Shown here: piece after piece, positions 7,382 through 18,238 of the stretch
Layout of the letters: each line of letters opens with the position of its first letter
How positions within the stretch are numbered: position 1 is the first letter of the stretch
DNA from: Gramella sp. MAR_2010_147
GTDB lineage: Bacteria; Bacteroidota; Bacteroidia; Flavobacteriales; Flavobacteriaceae
Direction: 5' to 3'
DNA length: 64,000 bases
NCBI RefSeq assembly: GCF_900105135.1
Contig: NZ_LT629741.1
Coordinates: 434,001 to 498,000 of the forward strand
The notes under the pieces: generated by a model
Told to the model about the DNA's origin: nothing
Databases searched by the model: none
What the model saw: only the letters and a program-made list of their open reading frames with translations
Program-made: the position numbers and the translations under genes

Positions 7382-8278
7382 ATGGTTGATATTACCCATA
7401 AAATAACGACACTTAGGGAAGCTACTGCGATTGCCGTGGTAAAAACTTCCAGTGCAAAAACGATCAAAGCGATTCAGGAAAACAGGGTTCCAAAAGGCAA
7501 TGTTTTTGAAATGGCGAAAGCCGCAGGATTACTGGGTGTTAAGAAAACTCCAGATCTCTTACCCGATTGTCATCCATTACCTATTGAATATACGGGGATC
7601 GAATATGAAATTAACGGTCTCGAGATCCAGATTTCGATGAAAGTCAAAACTATTTATAAGACAGGCGTGGAGGTAGAAGCCATGCATGGAGCTAGCATAG
7701 TGGCTTTGACGATGTATGACATGCTAAAGCCTATTGATAAGAATGTGGAGATAGGAACTATTAAACTTCTGAAAAAAAAGGGCGGGAAATCTTCCTTTAA
7801 AGTAAATACTGAAGGACTTACAGCAAAAATCATTGTTTGCTCTGATACGATTTCTAAAGGTAATGGCGAAGACAAAGCCGGGATAACGATTATTTCAAAA
7901 CTTGAAGAATTTGGAATAAAATCTGAAAAAGTCATTATTCCTGATGAAGCTGATGAAATACGTTCAGCATTAAATTCAGCAAAAGCCGATATCGTAATTT
8001 TTACGGGAGGAACCGGAGTTGGGCCACGCGATGTTACACCGGAAACTATAGAGCTCATGCTGGATCTAAAACTAAAAGGAGTTGAGGAGCAAATGCGAAA
8101 TTATGGACAGCAACGTATGCCATATGCAATGCTCTCAAGATCTGTAGCCGGACTTAAAGATGAAAAAGTAGTGCTGACACTGCCAGGATCTACCAAAGCA
8201 GCTACTGAATGTATGGATGCGATATTTCCGCATGTATTGCACGTTTTCAAAGTGATAGAAGGAAAGAGACATGATTAA
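7382..8278 (+). CDS. MoaC-MoaB fusion protein (cPMP synthase / MPT adenylyltransferase-like)
   Basis: A 298-residue two-domain protein. Residues 1 to about 150 are MoaC, which with MoaA makes cyclic pyranopterin monophosphate; conserved motifs are [10 protein letters not shown] and [19 protein letters not shown]. Residues from about 150 to the end are a MoaB/MogA-type domain ([37 protein letters not shown]) that adenylates molybdopterin before metal insertion by MoeA. An early and a late step of the pathway are thus joined. Such fusions are known in Bacteroidota. The gene begins right after the moaE stop and overlaps the moaA start by 8 bases. Confidence 0.92.
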
Positions 8279-9262
8279 AAAGAAAAAGAAAATAATAGAC
8301 AATTTTGGAAGAGCCCATACCTATCTCAGGATCTCACTGACAGATCGCTGCAACCTGCGTTGTTTTTATTGCATGCCTGAAGAAGGGATAGAGCTGATGG
8401 AAAAGTCTAATATTATGAGCATTGAAGAGATCATTGAACTGGCCAGAACTTTTCGGGATCTGGGAGTTGATACTATCCGGCTTACGGGGGAGAACCCCTG
8501 GTGCGAAAAAATTTTGGCTATCTGGTTGAAGAACTGGCAAAATTAGGCGTGACTTTAAAGATCACTACAAACGGAATCATGCTGGATAGATACCTGGAGC
8601 TTTTTCAGAAGATAGGCTTGAAAAAGATCAACTTGAGTCTGGATACACTGGATAAAGCGAAATCGGTTTTTATTACCAAGCGCGATTACTTTGAGCGTAT
8701 TATGACGAATATAGAAATGGCACTGGAGATGGCTATGGAAGTGAAGCTTAATATTGTATTGATCAAAGGAGTGAATGATAACGAGATCAATGATTTTGTT
8801 GAACTTACCAGACATAAGAACCTTACGGTGAAATTTATTGAATTTATGCCCTTTAAAGGTAATAAATGGGATTGGAGCAAAGGCATAGGGAAGCAGGAGA
8901 TACTCGATACAATTTCTGATAAATTTGGGGATTTTGAAGAGCTGGAAAATCCAAAACACAGTACTTCTACTAATTTTAAGGTGAAAGGACATCTTGGGAG
9001 TTTCGCGATCGTAAGCACGATTACCAATCCGTTTTGTGATGAATGCAATCGTATTCGAGTCACCGCCGATGGTAAAATGAAGAATTGTCTTTTTGCAAAT
9101 TCTGAAACCGATCTGCTCACACCGTTCCGAAATGGTGAACAGATGAATGAAATTATTATAAATGCGATCAAGACCAAAAAATATTCCCGGGATGGTATGG
9201 ATGTTAAAATGGATGCCGATCATTACGAACAGAACAGGTCTATGATCTCAATTGGAGGATAA
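8271..9262 (+). pseudogene. moaA: moaA, GTP 3',8-cyclase, interrupted by a one-base frameshift
   Basis: Radical-SAM enzyme of the first Moco step (GTP to 3',8-cH2GTP). The first frame (8271-8546) holds the iron-sulfur motif CNLRCFYC and runs well up to IRLTG, then turns to nonsense at about 8490. The second frame resumes as [19 protein letters not shown] and continues to the C-terminal cluster motif CDECNRIRVTADGKMKNC and the conserved terminal Gly-Gly. The break lies in GGGGG (8486-8490). Adding one G would restore the universal LTGGEP motif and a 330-residue protein, the usual MoaA length. All other motifs are intact, so the lesion is recent, phase-variable, or a sequencing error. Its ATG overlaps moaCB and its stop overlaps moeA (TAATG). 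Confidence 0.9.
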
Positions 9263-10428
9263 TGGTAAGCATAGAAGAAGCTCTAAAAATCATCAGTAAT
9301 CAGCCCGTCAATCTAAAAACAGAAACACGGGAACTCAGTAAATGTCCAGGTTTTTCGCTTTCCGAAGAAATTAGAGCGCCATTTGATATGCCTGCTTTTG
9401 ATAATTCAGCCATGGACGGTTATGCCTTATGCGGAATTTCAAAGGAATACAATATAGTAGGCGAAGTTGCGGCAGGCGATAAAAGTGACTATAAATTAAA
9501 GGAAGGTGAAGCGGTACGTATTTTTACGGGAGCCAGTGTTCCGGAAAATTCAACTGCTGTAATAATGCAGGAAAAAACGAAGGTAGAGGTGAGTAAACTC
9601 ATTCTGGAGCAAGTACCTAATGAGGGGCAGTGTATTAGAAGAAGAGGTGGAGAGCTAAAAAAAGATCAGCTTGTTTTTGAAAAAGCTTATACAATCACTC
9701 CCGCAGGAATTGGACTGATTGGAAGCCTTGGAATTGAAAAAGTGGAAGTTTTTAAAAAGCCAAAAATCAACCTGATTACCACGGGAAATGAATTGATTGA
9801 ACCGGGTAAAGAAAAAGCGGCAGGGCAGATTTACGAATCTAATAGTTACGCACTTGCTTCAGCCTGCGAACAATATGGATTTTCAATTAACGGTAAAGAA
9901 CAGATCAAAGATGATTTTCAGGCGATCAAATCTGGAATCAGAAAATCATTAAAAAGCTCAGATGTATTGATACTTTCCGGGGGAATTTCTGTAGGTGATT
10001 ACGATTTTGTTAAACAGGCACTGGAAGAGAATGGTGTAGAAGAACTGTTTTATAAAGTTTTTCAGAAACCGGGAAAACCGCTGTATTTTGGAAAAAAAGC
10101 TGATAAATATATTTTTGCTTTACCGGGAAATCCTGCTTCCTCTTTAAGCTGTTTCTATGTGTATGTATTACCTTTTCTCTATAAATTAAGTGGATCTCAA
10201 AAAGATGGTTTAAAACAATTTAATGTTCCCATTTCTCACGATTTTGAAAATAAAGCTGACCGTCCAGTATTTTTAAAGGCAAACCTGGTAAATAACCACG
10301 TAGTTATTTTAAACGGACAGGGGTCTTCCATGATCCAGTCTATGGCTCTTGGAAATGCTTTAGTATTTCTAAATGCAGAAACATCGGTTAAAAAGGGTGA
10401 GAATGTCAGTTGCCTTCTAATTTCATAA
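9262..10428 (+). CDS. moeA: Molybdopterin molybdenumtransferase MoeA
   Basis: A 388-residue MoeA, which inserts molybdate into adenylylated molybdopterin. Motifs visible: FDMPAFDNSAMDGYAL near residue 43, GEAVRIFTGASVP, LITTGNELIEPG, LSGGISVGDYDFVK and ALPGNPASSLSCF in the MoCF-like domain, then a short C-terminal domain. The length fits the family. The ATG shares a base with the moaA stop, so its translation is probably coupled to the end of the moaA reading frame. The upstream frameshift could therefore also lower MoeA expression. Confidence 0.93.
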   Translation: MVSIEEALKIISNQPVNLKTETRELSKCPGFSLSEEIRAPFDMPAFDNSAMDGYALCGISKEYNIVGEVAAGDKSDYKLKEGEAVRIFTGASVPENSTAVIMQEKTKVEVSKLILEQVPNEGQCIRRRGGELKKDQLVFEKAYTITPAGIGLIGSLGIEKVEVFKKPKINLITTGNELIEPGKEKAAGQIYESNSYALASACEQYGFSINGKEQIKDDFQAIKSGIRKSLKSSDVLILSGGISVGDYDFVKQALEENGVEELFYKVFQKPGKPLYFGKKADKYIFALPGNPASSLSCFYVYVLPFLYKLSGSQKDGLKQFNVPISHDFENKADRPVFLKANLVNNHVVILNGQGSSMIQSMALGNALVFLNAETSVKKGENVSCLLIS

Positions 10429-10429
10429 T

Positions 10430-11185
10430 ATGCCTGTAGAATATCTCCCGTTTATATTCTTTTTTATTGCATTGTTTTATAGTTCGGTTGGGTTTGGTGG
10501 TGGTTCCAGTTATCTGGCAATTTTAAGTCTTTTTCTAACTGATTTCTATGAAATACGTTCTACCGCCCTTATTTTAAATATTTGTGTGGTAAGTATAGGA
10601 ACGATTGTTTATTTTAAAAATGGAATTCTAAAACCAAAAAAGCTCTGGCCCTTCTTTCTATTCAGTATTCCCTTAGCTTATCTTGGAGCAACGGTTAAAC
10701 TATCTCAACCTGTTTTCTTTTTGATCTTAGGAGGAGCTTTGATTCTGGCGGGATTTTCCATGATCCTGAAATTTGTAAATACTAGGGTGGAATCTCAGAA
10801 GTTTTCCAAATCTAAAAAGATCATATTAGGAGGTGGGATTGGTTTTCTATCAGGAATTTCAGGAATTGGTGGAGGTATATTTTTATCTCCTGTTTTAAAC
10901 CTGCTGAAATGGAAAAATCCCAGAATCATCGCTTCTCTTGCTTCCGTATTTATCCTGGTAAATTCAGTATCCGGATTAATAGGTCTAAGCGTTGCAGGTA
11001 CTTTTTTTGTAAATGATGACTTTATTTTAAGATTAATTATTGCAGTAGTACTTGGCGGTAGTTTGGGCTCTTACTTTTCAAACAGAAGATTTAACCTGAA
11101 GATTCTGGGAATTTTTACAGCAATTCTGGTTTTCTACGTTGGTCTCAGATTAATTATGCGCTACGGTTTCGGCCTTTATATTTGA
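10430..11185 (+). CDS. TauE/SafE family anion permease
   Basis: A 251-residue integral membrane protein with about eight hydrophobic segments and the two internal-repeat signatures of the TauE/SafE family: SVGFGGGSSYLAI near the N-terminus and GFLSGISGIGGGIFLSP in the middle. Family members move sulfite, sulfoacetate and other organosulfur or anionic compounds. It starts one base after the moeA stop and is the last gene of the Moco operon. A role in exporting sulfite or importing an oxyanion for the cofactor pathway is possible. The substrate cannot be assigned. Confidence 0.85.
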   Translation: MPVEYLPFIFFFIALFYSSVGFGGGSSYLAILSLFLTDFYEIRSTALILNICVVSIGTIVYFKNGILKPKKLWPFFLFSIPLAYLGATVKLSQPVFFLILGGALILAGFSMILKFVNTRVESQKFSKSKKIILGGGIGFLSGISGIGGGIFLSPVLNLLKWKNPRIIASLASVFILVNSVSGLIGLSVAGTFFVNDDFILRLIIAVVLGGSLGSYFSNRRFNLKILGIFTAILVFYVGLRLIMRYGFGLYI

Positions 11186-11354
11186 TTCTCTATTAATCAA
11201 TGGCATAAATTGGATGGAGCTTATAAATTTAAGAATTATCAACGCTAAGGAGTGAGGGACATAGTTGGGGATATGTGTGTTTAAGTATGGGGTAAAATTT
11301 CACGTTTCTATACCCTGTCATTTTGCAACTTGCTGATAACAAAACGCCTATAAA

Positions 11355-11371
11355 CTGGCACGAGAATTGCT
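11355..11371 (+). promoter_or_regulatory. Sigma-54 (RpoN) -24/-12 promoter
   Basis: The sequence reads CTGGCACG-N4-TTGCT, an exact match to the RpoN consensus YTGGCACG-N4-TTGCW, with GG at 11357-11358 and GC at 11369-11370. Transcription should start at about 11382. It faces the glycosyltransferase gene, and this is the only such site noticed in the window. No NtrC-type activator gene is visible nearby, so the activator is unknown. Confidence 0.85.
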
Positions 11372-11427
11372 AAGGCGCATTGGAACAACTTCAGAATAAA
11401 ACGTTGTCGGGAATCAATAAACTTAAA

Positions 11428-12864
11428 ATGCAAATTGACAATATGGGTTCGGTGAGCTCAGGAAATAATAGCGTAGATAGCGGGGCAAAAAACACAGTCT
11501 TAGCAGAGGAGAATTTGACATCTTCAAAAACCAGAAACACAAAAGGGGTCATAGTAAGAGCAGCCAGCTTTCTTTTATTAATTGGGGCCGCGTACATGGC
11601 ATATGTACTGCAACATGATTTTACACAATATAAGCTGGGACGGGTAGAATCTATTTGGGGTTTACTGTTCTTTTCCGCTTTAACAGCCCTATTCTTTTTT
11701 AAAGTAGGCTTCTTTTTATATAATCTTTATCTATACTTCAGGTACAAACCGATTGAGGGGGTTAGTGATGAAAATTTGCCAACCTGTACCGTGATAGTAC
11801 CCGCATATAATGAAGGAAAGCAGGTATGGGCAACGCTCATGAGTCTCGCAGAGGGAGATTATCCGGCAGAAAAACTTGAATTATTAGCTATAGATGATGG
11901 AAGTAAGGATGATACCTGGTATTGGATGCAAAAAGCCAAAGAGGTGCTTGGAGACCGACTTTCAATATATCAACAACCTGTTAATAAAGGAAAGCGTCAT
12001 GCTTTATACCGCGGATTCAATTTGGGTAAGGGAGAGATTTTTGTTACTGTAGACAGTGATTCTGTCGTTGCTAAAGATACTCTTCGCAACCTTGTGAGTC
12101 CATTTGTAGTCAATGAAAAATGTGGGGCAGTTGCAGGAAACATTCGCGTACTTAATAATGAGGAAAAAGCCTTACTGCCAAAAATGCTGGATGTGAGCTT
12201 CGTTTTAAGTTTTGAATTCGTGCGTTCTGCGGAAAGTAGCCTTGAATCTGTTTTTTGTACTCCTGGAGCGCTGGCTGCATATAGAAGCGAAGCCGTTTTT
12301 AATTGCCTTCCAGAATGGATCAACCAGACATTTATGGGAAATCCTTCAGATATTGGGGAAGACAGAGCGATGACAAATATGATATTAAAGCAAGGCTACC
12401 ACGTGCTTTTCCAGAGGAATGCCTATGCATATACCAATGTTCCTGAAAAGTATACAGGGCTTTACAAGATGTTTATTAGATGGGGAAGAAGTAATGTAAG
12501 GGAGAACCTTGCGATGTCCAGATATGTATTTACAAATTTCAGGGAGGGATCAAAAACAGGTACCAGGATACTTTTTATAAATCAGATTTTAAAATTGGTG
12601 ATGAGCTATCCTTTTGTATTTTTTATGTTCTTTTTAATTTTTACGCATCCGTTGCTATTTATAAGTTCCACACTTTTAAGCATTCTTGTATGGTCCAGCT
12701 TTCCAGTATTGTTTTATGCAAAGAGATACAAATTATCTGAATCTTTTTGGGCCTATTCATATAGTATCTTATATACTTTTGGATTATTCTGGATCACTCC
12801 ATATGCCATCGCCACGGCTAGTAGAAGAGGTTGGCTAACCAGAGAACTGGTTGAAAAGAAGTAA
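11428..12864 (+). CDS. Membrane-bound family 2 glycosyltransferase (processive, hyaluronan/cellulose-synthase-like)
   Basis: A GT2 enzyme with an N-terminal pair of membrane segments, a cytoplasmic catalytic domain and C-terminal membrane segments, the plan of processive polysaccharide synthases. Catalytic signs are CTVIVPAYNEG, AIDDGSKDD, VTVDSDSVV (DXD-type), GEDRAMTN and the terminal IRWGRSN, equivalent to the RW of QxxRW. The frame is open from a TTG at 11380, but the sigma-54 promoter would start RNA near 11382. ATG 11428 (478 residues) or 11443 are thus better starts. It is monocistronic, ends at a hairpin terminator, and probably makes an exopolysaccharide under RpoN control. Sugar specificity is unknown. 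Confidence 0.85.
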   Translation: MQIDNMGSVSSGNNSVDSGAKNTVLAEENLTSSKTRNTKGVIVRAASFLLLIGAAYMAYVLQHDFTQYKLGRVESIWGLLFFSALTALFFFKVGFFLYNLYLYFRYKPIEGVSDENLPTCTVIVPAYNEGKQVWATLMSLAEGDYPAEKLELLAIDDGSKDDTWYWMQKAKEVLGDRLSIYQQPVNKGKRHALYRGFNLGKGEIFVTVDSDSVVAKDTLRNLVSPFVVNEKCGAVAGNIRVLNNEEKALLPKMLDVSFVLSFEFVRSAESSLESVFCTPGALAAYRSEAVFNCLPEWINQTFMGNPSDIGEDRAMTNMILKQGYHVLFQRNAYAYTNVPEKYTGLYKMFIRWGRSNVRENLAMSRYVFTNFREGSKTGTRILFINQILKLVMSYPFVFFMFFLIFTHPLLFISSTLLSILVWSSFPVLFYAKRYKLSESFWAYSYSILYTFGLFWITPYAIATASRRGWLTRELVEKK

Positions 12865-12881
12865 TTTTTTTAATTTATCAG

Positions 12882-12912
12882 AAAGGGATCTTAATAGATT
12901 CCTTTTTTTTTT
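12882..12912 (+). terminator. Intrinsic terminator after the glycosyltransferase gene
   Basis: The stem AAAGGGATCT / AGATTCCTTT closes a 3-base loop and runs into ten or more T residues, 17 bases after the stop codon. One internal G-T wobble is present. Confidence 0.85.
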
Positions 12913-12975
12913 TGAAGCGGTGATATTTGTGAATATCTAATCTAAAATTTACTCTACTCCTCGTAAGTTCTAAAT

Positions 12976-12983
12976 TATATTTG
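12976..12983 (+). promoter_or_regulatory. Bacteroidota -7 box upstream of the DUF4494 gene
   Basis: TATATTTG matches the -7 consensus TAnnTTTG and lies 22 bases before the ATG at 13006. No clear TTG -33 box is seen at the usual distance. Confidence 0.6.
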
Positions 12984-13005
12984 CCCTCCTAAAATATATA
13001 ATAAT

Positions 13006-13512
13006 ATGAGCGTTACCTGGTACGAATGTAAAGTTAAGTATAGAAAAACACACGAAACTGGAGAACAGAAACAAACAACGGAAACCTACCTGCTGGATGC
13101 GGTTTCCTATACCGAGGCTGAAGCTAGAATAAGCGAGGAAATGAAGGCTTACACGAGTGAAGAGTTCATGATAACGAATATCAAAGTAGCGAACCTTGCC
13201 GAGGTGCATCCTTTTGAAAATTCAGATCGCTGGTTCAAAACCAAAGTTTCTCTAATCGCCTACGATGATAAAACCGGAAAAGAGAAAAAAACAAATATGT
13301 ATTTGCTAGTCCAGGCGAATGATGTTAAAGAAGCCTTTGATAATACCAACCAGGCTATGCAGAATACTATGGGTGAATTTTCTATTCCAGCAATTACAGA
13401 ATCTTCTATACTTGATGTTTTCCCCTATTTTAGTGATGAAGAATATACGGAAAACAGGAGTGAGACCAATTCTGCAGATGAAGAATTAATTGAAGAGAGT
13501 GAATTAGTTTAA
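13006..13512 (+). CDS. DUF4494 domain-containing protein
   Basis: A 168-residue cytoplasmic protein of a family (DUF4494) conserved across Bacteroidota. The family function is unknown to me. The N-terminal half has the typical WYECKVKYRKTHETGEQKQ and DAVSYTEAEARI stretches. A second, similar strand-rich part follows (WFKTKVSLIAYDDKTGKEKK ... LLVQANDVKEAF), suggesting an internal duplication of one alpha/beta unit. The last about 25 residues are acidic and probably disordered. No signal peptide or membrane segment is seen. It is flanked by its own promoter and terminator, so it is transcribed alone. Confidence 0.85.
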   Translation: MSVTWYECKVKYRKTHETGEQKQTTETYLLDAVSYTEAEARISEEMKAYTSEEFMITNIKVANLAEVHPFENSDRWFKTKVSLIAYDDKTGKEKKTNMYLLVQANDVKEAFDNTNQAMQNTMGEFSIPAITESSILDVFPYFSDEEYTENRSETNSADEELIEESELV

Positions 13513-13549
13513 GATTCCTGAAAACCTGGTTTTAAACCATACTTTTTAT

Positions 13550-13583
13550 AAAGCATCCTTCAAAAATAGAGGATGCTTTTTTT
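13550..13583 (+). terminator. Intrinsic terminator after the DUF4494 gene
   Basis: A perfect 9-bp stem, AAAGCATCC / GGATGCTTT, is separated by 12 bases and followed by a T run. Confidence 0.9.
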
Positions 13584-13605
13584 ATCCTTTATCATATAGT
13601 TGGAC

Positions 13606-13620
13606 ATTAACTCAGTTAAT
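13606..13620. promoter_or_regulatory. Perfect 15-bp palindrome, possible operator of the uvrA-like gene
   Basis: ATTAACTCAGTTAAT is a perfect palindrome around a central C. It lies between a TTG (13600-13602) and a near-consensus -7 box TATATTTTG (13627-13635), about 130 bases before the uvrA-like ATG. This is where a repressor or activator would act. The regulator is unknown. Confidence 0.5.
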
Positions 13621-13750
13621 TTGTGGTATATTTTGCATGTAATAAGTATCAACAGCAATTATTCATAAGGTACTTCCCTTAAAAACTCATTTTAGCTATT
13701 TTAATCTCTCTATATTTATTTTTTTGAATTATATGAAACGATAGGCTTTT

Positions 13751-16700
13751 ATGCACATTATCAATGCCCACCAGAACAATCTCAAAAATATAAGTTTAAA
13801 GCTTCCGGAAAATCAGTTGATCGTTGTGACCGGTTTATCTGGTTCAGGGAAATCTTCTCTGGCCATGGATGTGATTGCCAATGAAGGATATCGTTATTTT
13901 TTGGAAAGTCTCCCAGCCTACAACCAGCAAAATGCACAATTAATACCTACTGCCGAAGTTGACGAAATTGAGGCATTACCCCCGGTAATTAAAGTGGAGC
14001 AGTCCAGACGTTTCCAGTCTATAAATACCACCTTCGGGACACTGTCTGAACTTGCTGCTATTTTCAGAATTTTATTCGCGCGTTTTGCTGGTGAAGAAAC
14101 CATGAGTAAATCATTATTTTCATTCAACCATCCAAAAGGGGCATGTACGCATTGTAGAGGGATTGGTGAAGCGGAATATATTGATCTTAATAAATTAATT
14201 GGAGATGAAAATAAAACGCTTAGGGAAGGTGCCATCACCACAACTTTGCCAAATGGTTATATTGTTTACTCCCAGATTACGGTAGAAGAATTAAATAGGG
14301 TATGTAAGGAACATGGGTTTAACGTGGATATTCCCTGGAAGAACCTCACAGAGGAACAAAAAGAGGTTGTTTTAAATGGTAGCGATCGATTAAAAGTCTT
14401 TTACGGGAAACATAGTATAGAGTCGCGTTTAAGATGGAAAGGTCTAAAAGCAAAGCCCAGGGAAGAAGGTTTTTATAAAGGTATGCTTCCTATCATGAAA
14501 GATATTTTGAGGCGTGATCGGAATCCAAATATCCTGAAATTTGCCAGTTCCCGTATTTGTCCCAGTTGTAAAGGGGCACGTATTAAGGCAGATCATCTAA
14601 AATTTACATGGAAAGGGCTTAACTTTCAGGATTGGATGGATCTTAATTTAAAAGATTTATACGATAAACTGCAAAATCAAGACTTTACGGCAGCGGAACA
14701 GGCACTGGTTGAAAAGATTTCAATTCAGTTATTCGACCTCATTCGGCTGGGAATGGAAGATTATAAGCTGAGTACCCCAAGTACAGAAATATCTTCAGGA
14801 GATGCTCAGCGTATCAAATTAATAAAACAGGTAAACAGTGATTTACAGGGTGTTCTTTATGTTTTTGATGAACCTTCTATTGGATTAAGTCCAGATTACC
14901 AGTCTTACCTGAGACACATTTTCAACCGACTGATAAGCCGAGGGAATACGGTAATGGTGGTGGAACATGATCTGAACTTTATCAGGTCTGCCGACTGGAT
15001 CGTTGAATTAGGTCCGGCTGCCGGAATTCATGGAGGTGAAGTTATTTTTAATGGACCGATTCAGGAATTTTTAAATTCACAAAATTTATTAAGCCCCACG
15101 TTGGCGGAGTTGCAAAGAGAAACTCCTGATTTTGAGATTTCATCAAACCAAAAATCGCAAGATACTTTTAAGCCTCAGCTACACAAATTGACGGTTATAA
15201 GCAGAAAAACTCCGCGTATGCTAGAGTTGCTTTCTAAATATTGTGAAAAACAAAGTCTAAACCTTGTAGCAGTATCAGATCAACCCATAGGTAAAACCCC
15301 CAGAAGTAATCCCGCCACGTATACGGGCTTAGCAGATAAGATTCGTGATTTACTTGCCAAATCTCCTGAAGCAAAATCACTGAATTTAGCTAAAGGAGCT
15401 TTTTCATTCAACAATAAAACCGGGAGATGTGAAACCTGCGAAGGGGCGGGGGTTATTACATTATCCATGAATGTGATGGGAACGATTAACCAGGTTTGTC
15501 CGGAATGTAATGGGAAGCGTTTTAAGCCGGAAGTGTTACAGGTGCACTGGAATAATAAAAATATCGCCGATATCTATAACCTGAGCATTTCCGAAGCTTT
15601 TGATTTCTTTTCCGGAGAGAAGAAAATTGCTAAAATACTGTCTTTGATGTTACAGTTGGGTCTTGGCTATATTAAACTGGGACAACCTTCCAATACCTTG
15701 TCGGGTGGTGAGGCGCAGCGCATTAAACTTACCAGGCATTTTGCAAAACAGTCTAAAAATACACTGCTATTATTGGAGGAACCAAGTATTGGCTTGCATC
15801 CGCAAAACGTAAGGCAGCTGTTGAAAGCTTTGCATGAACTTAAACACGGAACAGGAGGAATTATTTGCTTTGAGAATCATTCCCTTTTTCAATCTGAAGC
15901 TGATGTATTTATAGACAATGCGCTTAAAGCTCCGGCACTCAATCTCAAAGAGGTTTCAGGTTATAGTAGGGATAGTATTTCAATAAAGGGAGCCCGAACA
16001 CATCATCTCAAAGATCTCGATCTGGAACTGCCAAAAAATCAACTATCTGTGATCACAGGAATTTCAGGATCTGGAAAATCATCCTTAGTGATAGACACCT
16101 TACATGGCTACGGATTACAGGAAATGACCAAACAATTTTCGAGTTACCAACAATCAAGGGTAGGAGTGAATTTTCAGTTTGAAGTAGATCATATACAAGG
16201 GCTTAGTCCCACGATTTGTATCACACGTAAAGAAAAAAGTTTTACCCAGCGTTCTGATATTGCCAAACAAACCGGTATTGATAAGATTTTACGTTTCGCG
16301 TTCTCCCGAAAAGCACAATTTGAAGGTGAAAATTTATCTGCCAGTCATTTTTCCAATAATCATGAATTAGGAAAATGTGCTATTTGCGATGGAATTGGAG
16401 AAGAACTGTTGCCAGATCTGAATAAAATCGTAGTTGATGAATCGAAAAGTATTTCGGAGGGGTTATTTAAACATAATAAAGCCCTGGCATATTATGGCCA
16501 TGCTGGCAGTCAGTATATGGCAGTTGTAAAAGAGCTGAGTAAGAATCACGGATTTAGTCTGGAAACAGCGTTCGATGAATTGACTGCAAAACAGAAAGAT
16601 ATTCTATTTTATGGCACTGGCGAGGTGATATGGAAAACGAACTGGCAATTCAAAACCAAAACCAGGAAAGGAAGCCAAAAATTAAGCATGCCCTGGGAAG

Positions 16701-18238
16701 GTCTTTTTCATTACCTGAAAGAAGAATATTATAAGACCCGTAAAAATAAGAATATAGATAAGTTAAAGTCACTTTTCACATCTGCAGAATGCAGTAACTG
16801 TGAGGGAAGTGGATTAAAACCGGAAAGATTAGATTTCAAAATTAGTGAGAAATCTATTCATGCAATTAAATCCATGGATTTTAATGCTTTGGAAGAATGG
16901 ATCGCTTCTGAAGATCAGGCAGAAATAGATCAAAAACTTATTTCCCGTATTCGGCCACTTCTGGCTAACACCGTTAAAAGAGCAAAACAATTACATATAG
17001 ACCATTTACAATTAAACCGAAAATCGGTCACACTTTCCGGAGGAGAAAATCAACGAGTAGCGCTGATCAAACAATTGAACTCACCGCTTAAAGGCATAAC
17101 CTATCTACTAGATGAGCCTTCAGCAGGATTGTCCAATGATAATATTCCTGATTTGATCACTATTCTAAAGGAACTTATTGAAAAAGGGAATACGGTAATT
17201 GTAATTGAACACAATAAGGAAATCATGCTGGCAGCCGATAAATTAATTGAGTTAGGGGTTGGCGCAGGTAAGTTTGGGGGTGATATTACTTACCAGGGGA
17301 CTCCTCAGGATTTTTTGAAACAAGCCGATTGTCATCCATATTTGAAAACAGCTTCTAAAAAGCTGGAATTGAAAAGCGGAAGAAATCCTGTTGAGATCAA
17401 AAAACTATTCAGACATAGCTTAAAAAAAGAAAGGCTGGAAGTGCCGGTTGGAGGAATCACCGCAGTAAGTGGGAAATCGGGGATAGGAAAGACCACCTTA
17501 GTGAAAGACATCCTGATTCCCAGTATTAATACGGGGAAACCTGTGCATTGTGGAGGCATTAAGTTTCCGAAGAAATATTCATCCGCGCATTATTTTGAGG
17601 CTAAAAAACTAAGGTCTCATGCAAATACTTTGTTAGTATCCTATCTGGATCTTATGAAAGAAATCGGTAAAATTTTTGCTCGTGAAACGGAGCTCAAACC
17701 TCGGGATTTTTCTTATAAAACTAAAACCAGTCAGTGTCCCAACTGCAACGGCAAAGGATATATTGAAACCAGTTTAGATGTTGCAGCTAATTCTGTAGAA
17801 AAATGCGAGGTATGCAACGGGCTACGCTTTAAGAAAGACATTCTGAAGCATGCGGTAACATCTAAAAATATCGCTGAGGTGCTGGCTTTGAATATAGCGG
17901 AGTTTAAAGAATGGTTGCAGGCTGTTGAAACTACTGTTAAAGAACATCATTTGCTGGATCAACTGGAGGATATTGGTTTAGCTCATCTTCGCTTAGATCA
18001 ACGAGTGCAGTCACTTTCATCTGGAGAAAAACAGCGCTTACTATTATTAAACTGGCTTCAGGAAGAAAATAAGAATACTCTTTATATTTTAGATGAACCC
18101 AGCACTGGATTGCATTATGCAGATATTGACCTGTTATATGCTATTCTGAAGAGATTGAGCAAAAACAATGATATTCTGGTTATAGATCATAATCCATATT
18201 TACTGGAGAAAATAGGAGTAGGGGTGGTTCTGAAATAG
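13751..18238 (+). CDS. Tandem UvrA2-like ABC ATPase, two UvrA units in one chain
   Basis: A 1495-residue protein built as two UvrA-like units (about 1-735 and 745-1495), so four ABC ATPase domains. Walker A motifs are at 28-36 (GLSGSGKSS), 770-778 (GISGSGKSS) and 1241-1249 (GKSGIGKTT). The second domain has none. Signature motifs are at 346-354 (EISSGDAQR), 650-657, 1095-1102 and 1421-1429. Walker B Asp/Glu pairs are at D373, D1121 and D1448, with Glu-Glu (E676-E677) in domain two. Every domain keeps a CxxC pair set (for example CTHC at 132), so four zinc modules. Only about 95-105 residues separate Walker A from the first CxxC, against about 215 in UvrA. The UvrB-binding domain is thus missing, as in UvrA2 proteins. 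UvrA2-type proteins are linked to damage tolerance and drug resistance; the role here is unproven. Confidence 0.85.
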   Translation: MHIINAHQNNLKNISLKLPENQLIVVTGLSGSGKSSLAMDVIANEGYRYFLESLPAYNQQNAQLIPTAEVDEIEALPPVIKVEQSRRFQSINTTFGTLSELAAIFRILFARFAGEETMSKSLFSFNHPKGACTHCRGIGEAEYIDLNKLIGDENKTLREGAITTTLPNGYIVYSQITVEELNRVCKEHGFNVDIPWKNLTEEQKEVVLNGSDRLKVFYGKHSIESRLRWKGLKAKPREEGFYKGMLPIMKDILRRDRNPNILKFASSRICPSCKGARIKADHLKFTWKGLNFQDWMDLNLKDLYDKLQNQDFTAAEQALVEKISIQLFDLIRLGMEDYKLSTPSTEISSGDAQRIKLIKQVNSDLQGVLYVFDEPSIGLSPDYQSYLRHIFNRLISRGNTVMVVEHDLNFIRSADWIVELGPAAGIHGGEVIFNGPIQEFLNSQNLLSPTLAELQRETPDFEISSNQKSQDTFKPQLHKLTVISRKTPRMLELLSKYCEKQSLNLVAVSDQPIGKTPRSNPATYTGLADKIRDLLAKSPEAKSLNLAKGAFSFNNKTGRCETCEGAGVITLSMNVMGTINQVCPECNGKRFKPEVLQVHWNNKNIADIYNLSISEAFDFFSGEKKIAKILSLMLQLGLGYIKLGQPSNTLSGGEAQRIKLTRHFAKQSKNTLLLLEEPSIGLHPQNVRQLLKALHELKHGTGGIICFENHSLFQSEADVFIDNALKAPALNLKEVSGYSRDSISIKGARTHHLKDLDLELPKNQLSVITGISGSGKSSLVIDTLHGYGLQEMTKQFSSYQQSRVGVNFQFEVDHIQGLSPTICITRKEKSFTQRSDIAKQTGIDKILRFAFSRKAQFEGENLSASHFSNNHELGKCAICDGIGEELLPDLNKIVVDESKSISEGLFKHNKALAYYGHAGSQYMAVVKELSKNHGFSLETAFDELTAKQKDILFYGTGEVIWKTNWQFKTKTRKGSQKLSMPWEGLFHYLKEEYYKTRKNKNIDKLKSLFTSAECSNCEGSGLKPERLDFKISEKSIHAIKSMDFNALEEWIASEDQAEIDQKLISRIRPLLANTVKRAKQLHIDHLQLNRKSVTLSGGENQRVALIKQLNSPLKGITYLLDEPSAGLSNDNIPDLITILKELIEKGNTVIVIEHNKEIMLAADKLIELGVGAGKFGGDITYQGTPQDFLKQADCHPYLKTASKKLELKSGRNPVEIKKLFRHSLKKERLEVPVGGITAVSGKSGIGKTTLVKDILIPSINTGKPVHCGGIKFPKKYSSAHYFEAKKLRSHANTLLVSYLDLMKEIGKIFARETELKPRDFSYKTKTSQCPNCNGKGYIETSLDVAANSVEKCEVCNGLRFKKDILKHAVTSKNIAEVLALNIAEFKEWLQAVETTVKEHHLLDQLEDIGLAHLRLDQRVQSLSSGEKQRLLLLNWLQEENKNTLYILDEPSTGLHYADIDLLYAILKRLSKNNDILVIDHNPYLLEKIGVGVVLK

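What the first reader, a model, noticed from the sequence alone, without database searches (positions are those of the whole stretch)
13751..18238. Tandem UvrA2-like protein with four ABC domains, one without Walker A
Two whole UvrA-like units are fused. All four zinc modules are kept. The UvrB-binding domain is missing in both. Domain two lacks a Walker A and has Glu-Glu in Walker B, so the chain has three potentially active ATP sites and one dead one. UvrA works as a dimer, so this protein may act as a built-in, asymmetric dimer on damaged or drug-bound DNA, without UvrB.
Basis: partly seen in the sequence, partly recalled or inferred. Interest (0 to 1): 0.75.

Follow-up and report, generated by a model that had tools for sequence, protein, structure and literature searches.

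The report
Fused double UvrA, one ATP-site lost
A marine bacterium carries, besides its normal DNA-damage sensors, a protein made of two fused sensor units in which one of the four ATP sites has been worn away during evolution, which would make it a natural lopsided version of a machine that is normally symmetric.

Summary
Window 13751-18238 is one 1495-residue frame of two UvrA-like units. Both lack the UvrB-binding domain and keep the insertion domain. All 16 zinc cysteines are invariant in 69 of 69 aligned relatives. These parts form one composite site, the 'distal' ATP site of unit 1. The other three sites keep their key residues in 69 of 69.
The gene belongs to a patchy Bacteroidota family, separate from the chlamydial tandem UvrA, which keeps UvrB domains and four P-loops. 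Divergent Bacteroidota tandems form a series: one copy has four consensus sites; seven keep a P-loop 2 (altered in one) but lost Walker B Asp, H-loop His and signature of that same site. The genome also has two canonical UvrAs and one UvrB.
Best reading: a UvrB-independent class II UvrA built as a covalent, asymmetric pseudo-dimer. Anatomy is shown; intramolecular pairing and substrate are inferred. A new variant of a known kind.

The parts
13751..18238 (+). tandem class II UvrA-like gene, 1495 aa
13751..15967 (+). unit 1 (residues 1-739), NBD1+NBD2; AF2 model pLDDT 85.1
15968..18235 (+). unit 2 (residues 740-1495), NBD3+NBD4; AF2 model pLDDT 87.4
13832..13858 (+). Walker A of NBD1 (GLSGSGKSS, residues 28-36): proximal site of unit 1
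   Evidence: Lys and Ser 69 of 69
14144..14569 (+). zinc module 2 of unit 1 (C132/C135 ... C270/C273) enclosing insertion domain 1 (about residues 151-262)
14789..14812 (+). signature of NBD1, ISSGDAQR (residues 347-354), mildly altered; partner of the lost distal site
14855..14878 (+). Walker B of NBD1, LYVFDEPS (369-376), intact
15176..15268 (+). stretch where NBD2 Walker A should be (residues 476-506): no P-loop, beta-hairpin missing; poorly conserved (mean pairwise identity 0.39)
15290..15331 (+). GKTPRSNPATYTGL motif of NBD2 (residues 514-527), retained in unit 1, not retained in NBD4
15428..15508 (+). zinc module 3 of unit 1 (C560/C563/C583/C586)
15698..15721 (+). signature of NBD2, LSGGEAQR (650-657), intact; completes the proximal site of unit 1
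15764..15787 (+). Walker B of NBD2, LLLLEEPS (672-679): Asp replaced by Glu at 676
   Evidence: E in 67 of 69
15875..15877 (+). H-loop position of NBD2 (Asn709 in place of His)
   Evidence: His in 0 of 69
15896..15970 (+). linker between units (residues 716-740), identity 0.33
16058..16084 (+). Walker A of NBD3 (770-778), intact
16376..16801 (+). zinc module 2 of unit 2 (C876/C879 ... C1014/C1017) enclosing insertion domain 2 (PF17755, residues 889-1003)
17033..17056 (+). signature of NBD3, LSGGENQR (1095-1102)
17099..17122 (+). Walker B of NBD3 (1117-1124), intact
17471..17497 (+). Walker A of NBD4, GKSGIGKTT (1241-1249), intact
17735..17815 (+). zinc module 3 of unit 2 (C1329/C1332/C1352/C1355)
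18014..18037 (+). signature of NBD4, LSSGEKQR (1422-1429)
18080..18103 (+). Walker B of NBD4, LYILDEPS (1444-1451)
13550..13579 (+). terminator-like hairpin after the upstream DUF4494 gene, so the gene may be its own transcription unit
   Evidence: consensus match; the region gave no more such sites than its shuffles

Best explanation
The gene encodes a class II UvrA-type ATPase made as one covalent chain of two UvrA units that pair with each other into the saddle that other UvrAs form as a homodimer. It works without UvrB and senses DNA distorted by an adduct or a bound drug, as Ecm16 recognises echinomycin-bound DNA, and uses ATP to hold, remodel or clear it. Unit 1 keeps its proximal ATP site and the canonical NBD2 PRSNPATYTG motif but has lost its distal ATP site (P-loop, Walker B Asp, H-loop His). 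Unit 2 keeps both ATP sites. Shown here: the anatomy, the conservation, the concentration of losses in one composite site, and the graded series in relatives. Inferred: intramolecular pairing, UvrB independence in action, the substrate, and what ATP does to it. A likely reason for the loss is that an active distal site is reported to favour UvrA dimerisation, and fusion makes that role dispensable in one unit while the second distal site still serves damage discrimination.
Against: The full chain could not be folded, so the pairing of units is untested. The altered signature of NBD1 (ISSGD) is close to the LSSGE of NBD4 and does not by itself prove loss. No conserved neighbour points to a substrate: the commonest neighbour family is in 13 of 69 loci. 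No expression or phenotype data were seen. The NBD4 and NBD3 loops of unit 2 have diverged from the UvrA consensus, so unit 2 may no longer touch DNA in the usual way.
Confidence: 0.55

Rival explanations
1. The fusion is only a way to make two UvrA units together; chains still dimerise with other chains, giving an eight-NBD assembly, and asymmetry has no special role.
For: [quoted passage not shown] PMC10192343 passage) are present in both units, and the 25-residue linker is variable (0.33), so it imposes little.
Against: The losses fall on one unit only, in 69 of 69 window-type and 7 of 7 intermediate copies, which fits fixed different roles of unit 1 and unit 2.
Confidence: 0.2
2. It is an accessory of classical NER: it pairs with one of the two canonical UvrAs and reaches UvrB through that partner.
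For: Own genome has two canonical UvrAs (947 and 929 aa) and one UvrB over cut-off.
Against: No UvrB-binding domain in either unit; fusion supplies a partner already; the related Ecm16 protects without UvrB (PMC10192343 passage).
Confidence: 0.12
3. It is a decaying paralogue on its way to loss.
For: Patchy: 13 of 397 family genomes, the own one included, hold the window type; 4 of 24 same-genus genomes lack it (one of them 73% complete); one copy (L111) has no intact frame.
Against: Three ATP sites and 16 cysteines invariant in 69 of 69 across several families; NBD2 outside the lost P-loop is 0.79 identical.
Confidence: 0.05
4. It is an anti-phage defence ATPase.
For: PADLOC mad3 model 279 bits; patchy distribution.
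Against: The two canonical UvrAs of the same genome score higher with the same model (325 and 300 bits; a single-unit class II protein 254); the nine neighbours scanned are not defence genes by their Pfam matches.
Confidence: 0.03

Closest known systems
Class II UvrA / UvrA2 and drug self-resistance UvrA-like proteins (D. radiodurans UvrA2 2vf7, Ecm16 7sh1, DrrC)
   Same: UvrA fold, no UvrB-binding domain, two zinc modules per unit, insertion domain (PMC10192343 and PMC5128194 passages)
   Different: Those are single units with two ATP sites per chain that homodimerise; here two units are fused and one distal site is gone.
Chlamydial-type tandem UvrA (NF001885, PRK00635, 1809 positions)
   Same: Two UvrA units in one chain
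   Different: UvrB-binding domain in both halves (7 of 7 rows L124-L130) and four P-loops (7 of 7); separate places in the unit tree; the window protein scores 682 against that family's cut-off 3054.
ABC proteins with one degenerate site (CFTR, MRP1, TAP and the like; recalled)
   Same: Consensus loss in one of two composite sites
   Different: Membrane transporters; in those the degenerate site usually keeps its P-loop (recalled), here the P-loop is missing.

Membership tests
Class II UvrA (UvrA2) | UvrA core fold | tested here: met
Class II UvrA (UvrA2) | no UvrB-binding domain and no zinc module 1 | tested here: met
Class II UvrA (UvrA2) | zinc modules 2 and 3 and insertion domain | tested here: met
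Class II UvrA (UvrA2) | one UvrA unit per chain, active as homodimer with four ATP sites | tested here: not met
   two units per chain, three intact sites
Class II UvrA (UvrA2) | role in damage or drug tolerance | not testable with these tools
   needs a mutant or a biochemical assay
Canonical UvrA (TIGR00630 / NF001503) | UvrB-binding domain | tested here: not met
   NF001503 1056.9 bits under its cut-off 1147, but TIGR00630 passes at 1080.1 against 729.8
Chlamydial tandem UvrA (NF001885) | tandem units with UvrB-binding domains and four P-loops | tested here: not met
MADS defence component mad3 (PADLOC) | a match to the mad3 model that canonical UvrAs do not share | tested here: not met
   both canonical UvrAs score higher with the same model

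The most novel reading that the evidence does not exclude
A natural UvrA with exactly one distal site, in which the two protomers have split the work: unit 1 holds DNA through canonical signature-II contacts with a permanently empty distal site, and unit 2 is the ATP engine. The same site of four was eroded stepwise, perhaps twice, after fusion made ATP-driven dimerisation unnecessary.
Probability: 0.35. Interest if true: 0.72.

Novelty: new variant of a known kind. Interest (0 to 1): 0.52.

Why it matters
UvrA is a symmetric dimer with two proximal and two distal ATP sites, so an ordinary mutation removes both copies of a site at once and the role of one distal site cannot be isolated. Here a fused chain has lost one distal site and kept the other, and relatives with an intact and with a partly eroded site exist for comparison. 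That makes the question 'does damage sensing need both distal sites?' directly testable. It also adds a tandem UvrA lineage without UvrB-binding domains in Bacteroidota, whose substrate is unknown to me.

Tried and rejected
Defence role: the PADLOC mad3 hit is generic, since the canonical UvrAs score higher. Operon partner: no neighbour family in more than 13 of 69 loci (ORFs of 80 aa or more, blastp clusters). Viral origin: a scan of viral contigs with six peptide patterns found no relative (close relatives only). Membership of the chlamydial tandem family: rejected on UvrB domains, P-loops, score and tree. A single origin of the eroded site: not settled. The unit tree puts intermediates and window type together (83); the full-length tree puts L160, with four consensus sites, beside the window type (92/91); holding eroded copies together is not rejected and gives a log-likelihood 5.14 higher (AU p 0.612). 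A VIA or Foldseek list that omits a family proves nothing about it.

In print: searches of the open PMC library for 'class II UvrA' or 'class III UvrA' (2 papers, none with 'class III UvrA'), for 'fused / tandem / duplicated / double UvrA', 'UvrA fusion', 'UvrA-UvrA' (6 papers, seen as a listing; one of them, PMC7835731, also in passages), and (81 papers, 20 listed; 0 papers; 43 papers, 12 listed) showed nothing about this family in what I saw. Subscription papers are not held, and I recall, without a source here, that earlier reviews may mention a third class of UvrA with four ABC domains.

Full report
What is there. The window lies in a 3.16-Mb single-contig genome, 99.79% complete. Its genus is Christiangramia (Gramella): the same-genus genome G022 has a 731,960-base contig with the gene, the length of the Christiangramia crocea contig in L091. 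The frame 13751-18238 codes for 1495 residues. Its best matches are UvrA models and UvrA structures. The longest frame listed on the opposite strand within it has 107 codons.

Anatomy. Each unit is NBD - zinc module 2 with insertion domain - signature - second NBD with zinc module 3. By the published scheme (PMC10192343 and PMC6486640, passages) the proximal site is ATP-binding I with signature II, the distal site ATP-binding II with signature I. In unit 1 the proximal site is complete: Walker A 28-36, Walker B DE 373-374, His406, LSGGE 650-654. The distal site of unit 1 is not: no P-loop, Glu for the Walker B Asp at 676, Asn709 for the H-loop His, and ISSGD in the partner signature. Unit 2 has both sites. 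In 69 aligned proteins the retained sites are invariant at the Walker A Lys, the Walker B Asp and Glu and the H-loop His, and the lost P-loop is absent in 69 of 69. The first Walker B residue of NBD2 is Glu in 67 of 69 and Asp in 2; the H-loop position is Asn in 64, other residues in 5, His in none. The NBD1 signature change is conservative (Ser348 in 68 of 69, Gly350 in 69 of 69), so by itself it is weak evidence of loss. The UvrB-binding insert is missing in both units (33 residues in each compared stretch in 68 of 69; the two exceptions are 66 and 41).

Relatives. A scan of one genome per GTDB species (two peptide patterns) confirmed 145 relatives and kept the best 80: 72 of the window type (L052-L123) and 8 others, so 72 is a lower bound. 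The window type sits in Flavobacteriaceae, Crocinitomicaceae, Marivirga and Echinicola, and in a few unnamed metagenome genomes. In whole-genome samples it was in 20 of 24 same-genus genomes (two of them cut by contig ends) and in 0 of 15 other genomes of the order, in 13 of 397 of the family including the own genome, in 1 of 395 of the class sample (the own genome), and in 2 of 395 of the phylum sample (the own genome and one more). The class sample held 7 genomes with a more divergent tandem and 12 with a single-unit class II-like UvrA; the family sample held 2 and 11. The single-unit ones not read individually are classed by match and frame length. In the family of G299, 4 of 35 genomes have a tandem. 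In the tree, the Crocinitomicaceae Lishizhenia groups with Echinicola, Mesonia, Sinomicrobium and Zunongwangia (100/100), away from the Crocinitomicaceae Brumimicrobium, which suggests horizontal transfer.

The erosion series. Of the divergent tandems I read ten (L158-L164, L209-L211). L160 has four consensus sites. Seven (L158, L159, L161, L162, L209, L210, L211) have LR[AVS]SE for signature 1, Val or Ile for the Walker B Asp of NBD2 and Gln for its H-loop His. All seven still have P-loop 2, with Ala for the Ser after the Lys in L161. Their other three sites keep the key residues. L163 and L164 are incomplete at the front; L163 has DE and His in NBD2, L164 has Ser for the Walker B Asp but keeps the His. 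So erosion hits one site of four in both groups, by different substitutions. Whether it began once or twice is open.

Origin. In a tree of 58 unit sequences the N-units of Bacteroidota tandems form one group (100) and the C-units another (100), apart from chlamydial-type units and from single-unit class II proteins (97) (SH-aLRT). This fits one fusion in Bacteroidota, independent of the chlamydial one. The rows were 13 window-type proteins of the 69, five divergent tandems plus two partial C-units, five chlamydial-type tandems (one of them from a planctomycete), eight of the 12 single-unit proteins, and the two own canonical UvrAs.

Second asymmetry. [quoted passage not shown] The NBD2 motif GKTPRSNPATYTG is kept in unit 1 (Arg, Ser, Asn each 69 of 69). 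The matching stretch of NBD4 is divergent in the window type, less so in intermediates, and also in chlamydial-type second units. That this motif touches DNA is recalled, not tested here. So unit 1 looks like the DNA holder and unit 2 like the ATP engine, an inference.

Surroundings. Neighbours are molybdenum-cofactor genes, TauE, a glycosyltransferase, DUF4494, two TldD/PmbA-like genes, DUF4159 and a MoxR-type ATPase. The gene lies alone between a terminator-like hairpin (13550-13579) and a 402-base gap. No neighbour family is common: at most 13 of 69 loci. The genome has two other UvrAs with UvrB-binding inserts and one UvrB over cut-off, so classical excision repair need not rest on this protein.

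How it most likely works. UvrA distal sites bind nucleotide tightly and are linked to damage discrimination, and an active distal site favours dimerisation (PMC6486640 and PMC7835731, abstract of the first and passages of both). Once two units are fused, dimerisation is free, so one distal site can go while the second keeps the discriminating function. Without UvrB domains the chain cannot hand DNA to UvrB in the usual way. Ecm16, of the same fold, recognises echinomycin-bound DNA and acts in a UvrB-knockout E. coli K12 (PMC10192343, passages). I therefore read the protein as a UvrB-independent sensor and remodeller of adduct- or drug-bound DNA. Anatomy is shown; pairing, substrate and outcome are inferred.

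Verdict. The kind (UvrA, class II, tandem) is known; the tandem without UvrB domains and with one lost distal site is a new variant as far as the open literature searched here shows.

Noticed in passing
window 8244-9262: The moaA-like gene is interrupted: its N-terminal part with the radical-SAM cysteines and its C-terminal part lie in different frames, meeting near 8480-8500. Real or a sequencing slip.
   Followed up: partly
L111 (Lacinutrix neustonica), around 10001-14502: A 72%-identical copy of the tandem gene without an intact long frame.
   Followed up: no
L164 (G314): Walker B of NBD2 reads Ser-Glu although the H-loop His and P-loop are kept: perhaps an early step of the same erosion.
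   Followed up: no
L020 and L021: The genome carries two canonical UvrAs, 947 and 929 aa, with UvrB-type inserts of about 155 residues; neither shows a C-x2-C pair before the FSFN motif, so zinc module 1 looks incomplete in both.
   Followed up: partly
L128 (Planctomycetaceae): A planctomycete tandem UvrA with UvrB domains in both halves and four P-loops, in a 2356-residue open frame.
   Followed up: no
L215 and L216: Short single-unit class II-like UvrAs (762 and 758 aa frames) with both P-loops intact, possible outgroups.
   Followed up: no
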